NCBI RefSeq assembly: GCF_014062315.1
Contig: NZ_JACGLT010000004.1
Location: 310,001 to 374,000, forward strand
Reading direction: 5' to 3'
Origin: Gelidibacter maritimus
GTDB lineage: Bacteria; Bacteroidota; Bacteroidia; Flavobacteriales; Flavobacteriaceae
DNA: 64,000 nucleotides
The notes under the pieces are model-generated. The model was given only the letters and a program-made list of their open reading frames with translations. It was not told where the DNA came from and did not search any database. Positions 51,840 to 54,263 of the stretch are shown one piece after another (positions within the stretch are counted from its first letter, which is position 1; each line of letters opens with the position of its first letter). Made by a program: the position numbers and the translations under genes.

Positions 51840-53570
51840 CTATACATCAAGTCCAAAGGTTTTTCTCAAAAGTTCAAGATTTGGATTTTTCTCTTTCAGT
51901 TTCTCATACTTCTCAAGTGGAGTAAAGGCATATTTTTTAGCGACTTCCTCATTGACATCAACATATAAGGTGAGATCAAAGTTCCGAACAGCCTTTCTGA
52001 GATGTTCCATCAACGGAAACTGTGCACGCTCCAATTCTATCTTGAGGGATTCATTGGGAAATTCAACATGTATTTTTGTGCCATCTAATCTTGGTTTGCT
52101 CATTTCCAGAATGGACACCATGATTTTTTCTCCTTTCTGATTTAAAGCTGCTATATAATCCGTCCATGCTTCATGGAAAGCTTCAGGGGTAAAATCCTCT
52201 TTTGGTAAATCGTTAGGATCAATGACCACCTCCATTTGTTTGATGAGATGCTCTTTTTTGGCCTTAATACTTTTTAATGAAAGTCCCGAAGTACGTTTTG
52301 GATCAGGTTTCAAATCAATTTTCGGAATCACCTGTTGGGCCGCTGGATTTGATTTCTTCGTAGTGCCTGTTTCCGTATCGGTTGGTGAAGGTTCGGCAGC
52401 CTTGTTTCTGGCTGGAGATTCATGTTTTGGAAGCGTTACAGGAATAGGAGTAATGCCTTTCGATTTGAAATAAGAAGCTGGAATTATGTAGTGACTGCTA
52501 TTTTTTTTTTCTCCATCAAAAGTGATAGAGGCAAGCTGCATTAACGTGAGTTCAACGAGAAGACGCTGATTTTTACTGCTTTTAAATTTGAGATCACAGT
52601 CATTGGCAAGCTCGATACCTTTCATCAAGAATTCATAGGAGGCTTTCCTACATTGTTCCATGTATTTTATCTTAGTGTCTTCGCCAACTTCAAGGAGTTC
52701 TACGGTCTGTTCATTCTTACAGACCATTAAATCCCTAAAATGCGACGCTAAGCCTGCAATATAATGATGTCCGTCAAAACCTTTGGCTAAGGTATCATTA
52801 AATAAAATAAGTAGCTCGGGAATTTTATTTTCTAAAATTAGGTCGGTACTGGTAAAGTAGGTTTCGTAATCAAGAACATTTAAGTTCTCGGTTACGGCCT
52901 GCCTTGTCAGGTTTTTACCAGAAAAACTGACCACCCGATCGAATATTGAAAGCGCATCCCGCATAGCACCATCGGCTTTCTGGGCAATGATGTGGAGTGC
53001 GTCATCTTCAGCATCAATACCTTGTTCCTCGGCAATATATTTCAAATAGTCCTTTGCATCTTTAACCGTGATACGTTTAAAATCGAAGATTTGGCAACGC
53101 GATAAGATCGTTGGGATAATTTTATGCTTTTCAGTCGTCGCCAAAATGAAAACACAGTGTTTTGGCGGCTCTTCCAAGGTTTTTAAAAACGCATTAAAAG
53201 CGGCTTGAGATAACATGTGGACCTCATCAATAATATACACTTTATATTTTCCAACTTGTGGTGGAATTCTAACTTGGTCTGTTAAATTCCTGATATCGTC
53301 CACCGAGTTATTGGAGGCGGCATCAAGCTCAAAAATATTGAAGGCAAAATCTTCGTCTTCTTTCTCAGTGCCATCACTATTGATCATTTTAGCTAATATA
53401 CGTGCGCAGGTTGTTTTACCAACCCCACGTGGTCCTGTAAACAATAACGCTTGTGCTAAATGATGATTCTCAATGGCATTCATCAACGTATTGGTAATAG
53501 CCTGCTGGCCCACAACATCCTTAAAGGTCTGTGGTCTGTACTTACGCGCCGATACTACAAAATGTTCCAT
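51840..53570 (-). CDS. dnaX: DNA polymerase III subunit gamma/tau
   Basis: Clamp-loader ATPase, 576 residues. The start ARKYRPQTFKDVVGQ, Walker A GPRGVGKT (46-53), Walker B YIIDEVHML, sensor 1 LATTEK and the arginine-finger motif LSRCQ are all present; domains II-III run to about residue 355. Then follow a low-complexity P/K/S/T linker (about 370-420) and a tau-specific C-terminal region (about 440-576). Two oddities: the four-cysteine zinc module that normally follows Walker A is absent (MINSDGTEKEDEDFAFNIF stands there instead), and a run of ten A residues encodes E354-N357, where a -1 shift would stop translation at once, giving a gamma-sized product. Confidence 0.96.
   Translation of the reverse strand: MEHFVVSARKYRPQTFKDVVGQQAITNTLMNAIENHHLAQALLFTGPRGVGKTTCARILAKMINSDGTEKEDEDFAFNIFELDAASNNSVDDIRNLTDQVRIPPQVGKYKVYIIDEVHMLSQAAFNAFLKTLEEPPKHCVFILATTEKHKIIPTILSRCQIFDFKRITVKDAKDYLKYIAEEQGIDAEDDALHIIAQKADGAMRDALSIFDRVVSFSGKNLTRQAVTENLNVLDYETYFTSTDLILENKIPELLILFNDTLAKGFDGHHYIAGLASHFRDLMVCKNEQTVELLEVGEDTKIKYMEQCRKASYEFLMKGIELANDCDLKFKSSKNQRLLVELTLMQLASITFDGEKKNSSHYIIPASYFKSKGITPIPVTLPKHESPARNKAAEPSPTDTETGTTKKSNPAAQQVIPKIDLKPDPKRTSGLSLKSIKAKKEHLIKQMEVVIDPNDLPKEDFTPEAFHEAWTDYIAALNQKGEKIMVSILEMSKPRLDGTKIHVEFPNESLKIELERAQFPLMEHLRKAVRNFDLTLYVDVNEEVAKKYAFTPLEKYEKLKEKNPNLELLRKTFGLDV
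52501..52510 (-). other. A10 slippery run in dnaX, predicted gamma-producing shift site
   Basis: On the coding strand the sequence is GGA GAA AAA AAA AAT AGC: ten A residues. Slipping back one base, or transcribing one extra A, gives GGA GAA AAA AAA AAA TAG, a stop right after the run. The truncated protein would have 357 residues and end at the border of clamp-loader domain III, as gamma does in E. coli and Thermus thermophilus. Confidence 0.65.
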
Positions 53571-53845: not shown

Positions 53846-54254
53846 AAGTAAATCGCCTTATCGCTAAATGTTCAACTTGATTGAACGTCTCATATTTTGA
53901 GTTGAAAGATTCATTTATGAGATCCCCGCTTTCGCGAGGATTTGGAGGAAAGTCCGAACACCGTAGTGCAACATAATGGTTAATGGCCATCGGTCGTGAG
54001 ATCAGGAAAAGTGCAACAGAAAGTATGTACAGGTTAAGCTGTAGTGAAACCAGGTAAACTCTATGTGGTGCAATGTCATGTATACCAACGTCCAGTCCCA
54101 ATCGGGATCGGGAAAGGGCGGCACGCTCGATTGTTGGAGGGTAGACAGCTAAAGTGTACTGGTAACAGTGCATTCAGATAAATGATAAGGTACTTTTCTT
54201 TTTGGAATTCATTTCAAACTGAAAATGGACAGAATTCGGCTTACAGATTTACTT
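53846..54254 (+). ncRNA. rnpB: RNase P RNA (class A)
   Basis: Catalytic RNA that cuts the 5' leader from tRNA precursors. The universal core is visible: GAGGAAAGTCCGAACACC near the 5' side, ACAGAAAGTATGTACAGG in the middle, and CAGAATTCGGCTTACAG near the 3' end. The ends are set by pairing of AAGTAAATC (53846-53854) with GATTTACTT (54246-54254), which forms helix P1. The length of about 409 bases fits class A. A GC-rich helix (CCCAATCGGGATCGGGA) sits in the variable P12 area. It has its own promoter box and a terminator hairpin. Confidence 0.95.
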
Positions 54255-54263
54255 ATTTAAAAC

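What the first reader, a model, noticed from the sequence alone, without database searches (positions are those of the whole stretch)
52501..52514. Predicted programmed frameshift or transcriptional slippage making a gamma form of DnaX
The coding strand of dnaX contains GGA GAA AAA AAA AAT AGC: ten A residues at codons 354-357. A -1 shift, or one extra A in the mRNA, gives GAA AAA AAA AAA TAG, so translation stops directly after the run. The product (357 residues) ends exactly where clamp-loader domain III ends and the P/K/S/T linker of tau begins. E. coli (ribosomal frameshift at A AAA AAG) and Thermus thermophilus (slippage on A9) make gamma this way. I know of no description for Flavobacteriia, though I could not search.
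Basis: partly seen in the sequence, partly recalled or inferred. Interest (0 to 1): 0.75.

Follow-up and report, generated by a model that had tools for sequence, protein, structure and literature searches.

The report
RNA-polymerase slippage site in replication gene
A run of ten A's in the gene for a DNA-copying protein, kept in most of the related bacteria examined and here sitting right after a small RNA hairpin, very probably makes the transcription machinery stutter so that one gene yields both a long and a short protein.

Summary
dnaX (51840..53570, -) carries A10 at 52501..52510; one extra A gives TAG right after the run (357-aa gamma), one A fewer gives TAA 14 nt on. It is not chance: 260 of 303 dnaX loci examined from the window's phylum have a run of 9-13 A (10 in 211) near the domain III/linker junction, in all three codon phases. 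In 209 loci frame 0 encodes tau; in 49 it encodes gamma and tau needs a frame change at the run (44 by +1 A, 5 by -1 A, one in the window's genus). The tree needs at least 18 tau/gamma switches. In Flavobacteriaceae, codons making stops in both other frames are favoured, and an 8-bp covarying hairpin abuts the run (114 of 149 loci with 7-8 pairs; synonymous null mean 30, maximum 46). The window has no A AAA AAG site or 3' stem-loop, though 23 of 44 gamma-first (+1A) genes do have an in-frame A AAA AAG. Best reading: programmed transcriptional slippage, probably helped by the hairpin here. Slippage in dnaX is known (Thermus; two-ORF dnaX predicted in 2013); I found no description of the hairpin, the spread or two-way switching. 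RNA and protein evidence is missing.

The parts
51840..53570 (-). dnaX, 576 codons in frame 0 (tau form), stop included
   Evidence: ORF; TIGR02397 383 bits, over the cut-off
52501..52510 (-). A10 run, the proposed slippage site, codons 354-357
   Evidence: kept in relatives
52511..52530 (-). 8-bp hairpin with 4-nt loop directly 5' of the run
   Evidence: -7.8 kcal/mol, z -4.9; synonymous-codon null; covariation
52498..52500 (-). TAG stop met after +1 A (or a -1 ribosomal shift), ends the 357-aa gamma form
   Evidence: +1A stop within 9 nt in 126 of 126 family loci
52484..52486 (-). TAA stop met after -1 A or +2 A
   Evidence: Ile codon ATA in 96 of 102 loci against 0.20 elsewhere
51843..52193 (-). 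C-terminal folded region present only in tau (about residues 460-576)
   Evidence: AlphaFold model

Best explanation
The A10 run is a programmed transcriptional slippage site. While copying the T10 template, RNA polymerase sometimes realigns the transcript and adds or loses A's, so the cell holds dnaX mRNAs with different A counts. Templated A10 (or a change of three) is read as tau; +1 A stops at TAG after residue 357, and -1 or +2 A stops at TAA a few codons on, giving gamma: the clamp-loader domains without the tau linker and C-terminal region. In Flavobacteriaceae a hairpin in the nascent RNA directly behind the roughly 9-10-bp RNA-DNA hybrid probably stimulates the realignment. Because slippage supplies both products, the frame stored in DNA can switch between tau and gamma in evolution. 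Shown here: the site, its conservation, the stops, the hairpin with covariation, and relatives in which frame 0 encodes gamma. Inferred: that slippage occurs and how often, that RNA polymerase rather than the ribosome slips, that the hairpin stimulates it, and that gamma is made and used.
For: Run of A9-A13 in 260 of 303 loci, run start at about residues 351-389 in all 260. All three codon phases outside the family set: 22, 41, 45 of 108. Lys AAA 149/149 at both codons (0.79 elsewhere), Glu GAA 146/146 (0.75). Stops in both other frames: within 20 nt in 122 of 126 family loci against 17.5% of 42,643 control positions. Frame 0 = gamma in 49 loci, in both directions (44 and 5), at least 18 tau/gamma changes on the tree; tau tail recognisable in the shifted frame in 41 of 49. 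Hairpin: 114 of 149 against a null mean of 29.6 and maximum of 46; covariation score 0.242 against at most 0.127 when slid. No 3' structure. Precedents: slippage on A9 in Thermus dnaX and hairpin-dependent slippage in a Roseiflexus IS (PMC5009743, passages).
Against: No RNA or protein data. An A run can also make ribosomes shift by -1; the 44:5 bias towards +1A fits that too. An in-frame A AAA AAG is present in 23 of 44 gamma-first (+1A) genes against 30 of 209 tau-first ones, which favours a ribosomal part in those genes. The hairpin is not general: outside the family 9 of 108 loci reach p<=0.05, 5.4 expected, and 35 of 149 family loci form 6 pairs or fewer. In the covariation count the number of pairs with any two-sided change (4) does not exceed shuffles (367 of 500 as high). 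43 of 303 loci have no run of A8 or more, so tau/gamma by this route is dispensable in some lineages.
Confidence: 0.8

Rival explanations
1. Ribosomal -1 frameshifting on the A run, as in E. coli dnaX, makes gamma (or tau in gamma-first genes); the mRNA is uniform.
For: The run allows -1 re-pairing; the +1A direction (44 of 49) equals a -1 shift; 23 of 44 gamma-first (+1A) loci, among them 14 of the 15 in the family set, have an in-frame A AAA AAG, against 30 of 209 tau-first loci.
Against: The window's run ends in AAT, not AAG. Five loci need the other direction. Stops in the second off-frame are also selected (ATA 0.94 against 0.20). No 3' stem-loop: family mean z -0.31, 10 of 126 below -2; the A AAA AAG loci mean z +0.17, 3 of 55 below -2; window z +0.85. 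The conserved hairpin is 5' and touches the run.
Confidence: 0.14
2. The run is a mutation or sequencing hot spot (phase variation or assembly error) with no programmed role.
For: A10 is prone to replication and sequencing slippage; lengths 9, 11, 12 and 13 also occur (49 of 260).
Against: A10 in 211 of 260. A clade of 15 rows (Flavobacterium, Myroides and unnamed kin) is gamma-first throughout, 14 by +1A and 1 by -1A. Tau tails stay recognisable in 41 of 49. In L017 and L156 the extra base lies before the run, which is still A10. I searched one genome per species, so variation within a species was not tested.
Confidence: 0.03
3. The conservation reflects only the protein (Glu-Lys-Lys and the ASITFDG stretch), and off-frame stops are incidental.
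For: K355 and K356 are invariant in 45 aligned tau proteins, and 79 of 149 family loci share the peptide ASITFDGE.
Against: Codon choice is far from background at the same residues; hairpin pairs exceed the synonymous null; the run persists outside the family in other phases and other peptides.
Confidence: 0.03

Closest known systems
Thermus thermophilus dnaX transcriptional slippage on A9 (Larsen 2000; seen through passages of PMC5009743, PMC1088944, PMC3711429; paper not held)
   Same: Same gene, pure A run in the coding strand, tau in frame 0, stops near the run in the other frames, gamma as the short product.
   Different: A10 rather than A9; a 5' hairpin touching the run in this family (whether Thermus has one was not tested); relatives switch to gamma in frame 0; slippage itself not measured here.
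Two-ORF dnaX with poly-A, predicted slippage (Antonov 2013, PMC3711429)
   Same: The 49 gamma-first relatives are of this kind; A10 is the common length there too (9 of 12 with poly-A).
   Different: The window gene is a single ORF; I find both directions, where that paper reports -1 only; hairpin not mentioned in the passages and section I saw; species overlap unknown.
Stem-loop-mediated transcriptional slippage, Roseiflexus IS630 (Penno 2015; seen through PMC5009743 passages; paper not held)
   Same: Nascent-RNA hairpin directly 5' of the slippage run.
   Different: Homopolymer A10 instead of U5C5; weaker stem; housekeeping gene rather than transposase; effect of the hairpin not tested.
E. 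coli dnaX -1 ribosomal frameshift at A AAA AAG
   Same: Same outcome: tau and gamma from one gene.
   Different: In the window no A AAA AAG and no 3' stem-loop; the conserved structure is 5' of the run.

Membership tests
Programmed transcriptional slippage in dnaX (Thermus type) | Run of nine or more A in the coding strand | tested here: met
   A10
Programmed transcriptional slippage in dnaX (Thermus type) | Stop codons close by in both other frames | tested here: met
   TAG at 0 nt, TAA at 14 nt
Programmed transcriptional slippage in dnaX (Thermus type) | Site conserved in relatives beyond protein constraint | tested here: met
Programmed transcriptional slippage in dnaX (Thermus type) | mRNA of mixed A count and two protein products | not testable with these tools
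   no RNA reads or proteomics
Stem-loop-mediated transcriptional slippage (Roseiflexus IS630 type) | Hairpin directly 5' of the slippage run | tested here: met
Stem-loop-mediated transcriptional slippage (Roseiflexus IS630 type) | Slippage depends on the hairpin | not testable with these tools
   needs mutants
Stem-loop-mediated transcriptional slippage (Roseiflexus IS630 type) | U5C5 slippage motif | tested here: not met
   A10 instead
E. coli-type dnaX -1 ribosomal frameshift | In-frame A AAA AAG | tested here: not met
   window run ends in AAT; present in 23 of 44 gamma-first (+1A) relatives
E. coli-type dnaX -1 ribosomal frameshift | Stem-loop 3' of the site | tested here: not met
   z +0.85 in the window; family mean z -0.31
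E. coli-type dnaX -1 ribosomal frameshift | Shine-Dalgarno-like stimulator at a distance 5' of the site | tested here: inconclusive
   GGAG is present but touches the run; the proper spacing is recalled, not looked up
Two-ORF dnaX (Antonov 2013) | Frame 0 ends at the run and tau needs a frame change | tested here: not met
   window frame 0 runs through as tau; met in 49 relatives, L017 of the same genus included

The most novel reading that the evidence does not exclude
In this phylum dnaX has no privileged reading frame: an A10 cassette, tuned in Flavobacteriaceae by a hairpin behind RNA polymerase, sets the tau:gamma ratio at transcription, so that frame-shifting indels beside the run are close to neutral and the gene has repeatedly switched between tau-first and gamma-first forms in both directions.
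Probability: 0.55. Interest if true: 0.75.

Novelty: new variant of a known kind. Interest (0 to 1): 0.62.

Why it matters
Whether gamma matters to bacteria was long argued even for E. coli (the 2016 review speaks of considerable controversy, passages). A site kept in most sampled members of a phylum, with repeated tau/gamma frame switches, is evolutionary evidence that both forms are wanted. It offers a housekeeping gene in which to study hairpin-helped RNA polymerase slippage, and it suggests that split dnaX genes in Flavobacterium, Chryseobacterium and relatives are probably not pseudogenes or assembly errors.

Tried and rejected
E. coli-type frameshifting was tested. It is not supported for the window (run ends in AAT, no 3' structure, second off-frame stop selected).

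The hairpin as a phylum-wide feature was tested and rejected: outside the family set 9 of 108 loci reach p<=0.05, 5.4 expected, median p 0.93. An earlier test with dinucleotide shuffles over 180 run-bearing loci gave 40 with 0 of 20 shuffles as good, while over all loci 1154 of 3600 shuffles and 595 of 2160 in-gene control windows were as good as the observed hairpin; that set mixes the family with loci lacking the hairpin, so the synonymous-codon test was preferred.

Terminator reading: on the coding strand the hairpin is followed by A's and on the other strand the T run comes before the hairpin, so neither strand reads as an intrinsic terminator (from the sequence). Taking genomes with two matches as split genes was dropped, because some of them (G009, G181) prove to be single-ORF. 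The 13 IMG/VR loci with DnaX relatives were not analysed.

Limits of the sample. The 303 loci are 145 located by tblastn after 5 duplicates were removed, 78 class and phylum regions and 80 family regions. Family regions came from the better-scoring listed rows, so divergent and split genes are under-sampled there; the phylum table was also a capped list. The run was sought as the longest A8+ stretch in about codons 325-455 (to 480 for family regions). At least L269 and L311 repeat L069 and L076 from the other collection and are still counted in the 303; both, and L089 and L090, are Flavobacteriaceae inside the 108. The synonymous null treats related loci as independent (79 of 149 share one peptide). 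One search printed 140 loci, 14 of them gamma-first; the 126 quoted leave these out. BLAST E-values are for a database of 49 tails, without composition correction.

Full report
OBSERVATION. The minus strand of 51840..53570 is dnaX: 576 codons, TIGR02397 at 383 bits; the best solved relatives are chains named DNA polymerase III subunit tau or gamma. The run A10 lies at 52510..52501, codons 354-357, in GGA GAA AAA AAA AAT AGC. One extra A puts TAG directly after the run (357-residue product); one A fewer puts TAA 14 nt after it. In an AlphaFold model from 45 aligned tau proteins the last helix of domain III is 335-347, pLDDT falls from 90 (341-350) to below 50 at 354-364, and a C-terminal folded region starts near 460. 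The window's close named relatives are Flavobacteriaceae (73-74% identity).

IS IT CHANCE? Exact A10 occurs 22 times in the 4.7-Mb genome, both strands; 7 are inside open frames of at least 280 codons on the A strand with a possible start before the run. Among the 152 distinct Flavobacteriaceae-like loci used, none lacks the run (A10 in 140), while the other 177,659 nt of these genes hold 3 runs of A9 or longer. At the site lysine is AAA in 149 of 149 at both codons (background 0.79) and Glu is GAA in 146 of 146 (0.75).

HOW FAR IT IS CONSERVED. A run of 9-13 A is present in 260: A10 211, A9 28, A11 16, A13 3, A12 2; it starts at about residues 354-358 in the family set and 351-389 elsewhere. 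43 loci have no run of A8 or more: the three Bacteroidaceae sampled, several GC-rich families, but also 8 loci below 40% GC. Outside the family set the run starts in codon phase 0, 1 and 2 in 22, 41 and 45 loci.

TWO GENE ARRANGEMENTS. In 209 loci frame 0 encodes tau; the +1A frame stops within 27 nt in all 209 and the -1A frame within 61 nt in 208. In 49 loci frame 0 stops just after the run (gamma) and the tau part lies in another frame: +1A in 44, -1A in 5; 2 loci are ambiguous. Of the 49 shifted tails, 41 match the window's tau C-terminal part at E<1e-3 (the other 8 are weak or unmatched, some cut short), and 25 of 49 have no ATG, GTG or TTG in the first 50 codons of that frame, so separate translation of the tail is unlikely there. 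On a quick tree of 145 N-terminal proteins, built without the site, tau-first and gamma-first need at least 18 changes; the tree has many weak forks and long branches, and starred branches alone force 6 gains or losses of tau-first and 5 of gamma(+1A). One switch is inside the window's genus: L017 has one base more just before the run, which is still A10. L156 likewise has an added base between hairpin and run.

STOPS ARE SELECTED. In 126 tau-first family loci (A10 or A13, phase 1) the +1A stop is within 9 nt in all, and both off-frame stops are within 20 nt in 122; over 42,643 control positions in the same genes the figures are 26.7% and 17.5%. The codons that make them are unusual: Ser AGC 0.74 against 0.09, Ile ATA 0.94 against 0.20. 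A stop in the second off-frame is not needed for a pure -1 ribosomal shift.

THE HAIRPIN. Directly 5' of the run the window RNA can form CUCUAUCA-CUUU-UGAUGGAG, -7.8 kcal/mol, z -4.9, 0 of 200 shuffles as good. Codons -7 to -1 are biased (GCC 0.84 against 0.28, TCT 0.77/0.25, ATC 0.88/0.17, ACT 0.88/0.26, GGA 0.89/0.32). Of 149 family loci 114 form 7 or 8 of the 8 pairs; redrawing synonymous codons gives a mean of 29.6 and a maximum of 46 in 500 draws. On 57 distinct sequences 70.0% of cells pair (56.5% at most when slid), 24 cells are changed on both sides against 13.1 in shuffles (0 of 500 as high), and the covariation score is 0.242 against at most 0.127 when slid; the count of pairs with any two-sided change, 4, is no higher than in shuffles. 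Some substitutions change the protein and keep the pair, such as ATC/GAT to GTC/GAC. Outside the family there is no general enrichment (9 of 108, 5.4 expected), and 35 of 149 family loci form six pairs or fewer.

MECHANISM. Transcriptional slippage explains the pure A run, all three phases, both directions, both stops and a 5' hairpin. [quoted passage not shown] A10 next to a hairpin has that geometry. Ribosomal frameshifting is the main rival. The 44:5 bias fits it too, and an in-frame A AAA AAG is found in 23 of 44 gamma-first (+1A) loci against 30 of 209 tau-first loci, so a ribosomal part in those genes is possible. Against it: no 3' stem-loop (family mean z -0.31, 10 of 126 below -2; A AAA AAG loci mean z +0.17, 3 of 55 below -2; window z +0.85) and no AAG in the window. 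The step from pattern to mechanism is inference.

WHAT IS KNOWN. Antonov 2013 (PMC3711429, passages and the dnaX section) reports 17 two-ORF dnaX genes from 12 genera, nine with A10 and three others with A9, A8 and A7 (Chloroherpeton, Chlorobium), all -1, and proposes slippage; the species with A10 are in a supplement I could not read and may include members of this group. Baranov 2005 (PMC1088944, passages) notes that truncating slippage is hard to judge by comparison. Blochmannia dnaX (PMC3017870, passages) has a different poly-A frameshift inside the tau part. My searches (open-licence PMC papers only) showed no description of the spread, the hairpin or two-way switching; beyond the passages named I saw listings only. 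Larsen 2000 and Penno 2015 were not held.

VERDICT. Real, conserved and very probably functional: a new variant of dnaX transcriptional slippage, found in most sampled members of a phylum, with a 5' hairpin in one family and repeated tau/gamma frame switching.

Noticed in passing
window 53898..54259 (+): Bacterial RNase P class A RNA (RF00010, 155.7 bits), about 330 nt from the dnaX start and divergent to it.
   Followed up: no
L143 (uncultured Bacteroidales MAG): dnaX frame 0 stops at about residue 366 although no run of A6 or more is near; error, true truncation or another recoding signal.
   Followed up: no
L337-L349 (IMG/VR contigs): 13 viral-collection contigs encode DnaX relatives; not examined.
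   Followed up: no
own genome, L353, L354, L356, L362, L368, L370: Six other exact A10 runs inside long open frames on the A strand with a possible start before the run; whether they are slippage sites was not tested.
   Followed up: no
L122 (record titled Chryseobacterium gleum MAG): Its DnaX groups with a Crocinitomicaceae and an uncultured Flavobacteriales sequence, away from the Chryseobacterium and Halpernia rows, so the bin may be misnamed.
   Followed up: no
L081, L083, L085, L121, L130, L155-L166 in part: Gamma-first genes often carry an in-frame A AAA AAG (23 of 44 with +1A, against 30 of 209 tau-first), as if ribosomal shifting helps where tau depends on the slip.
   Followed up: partly
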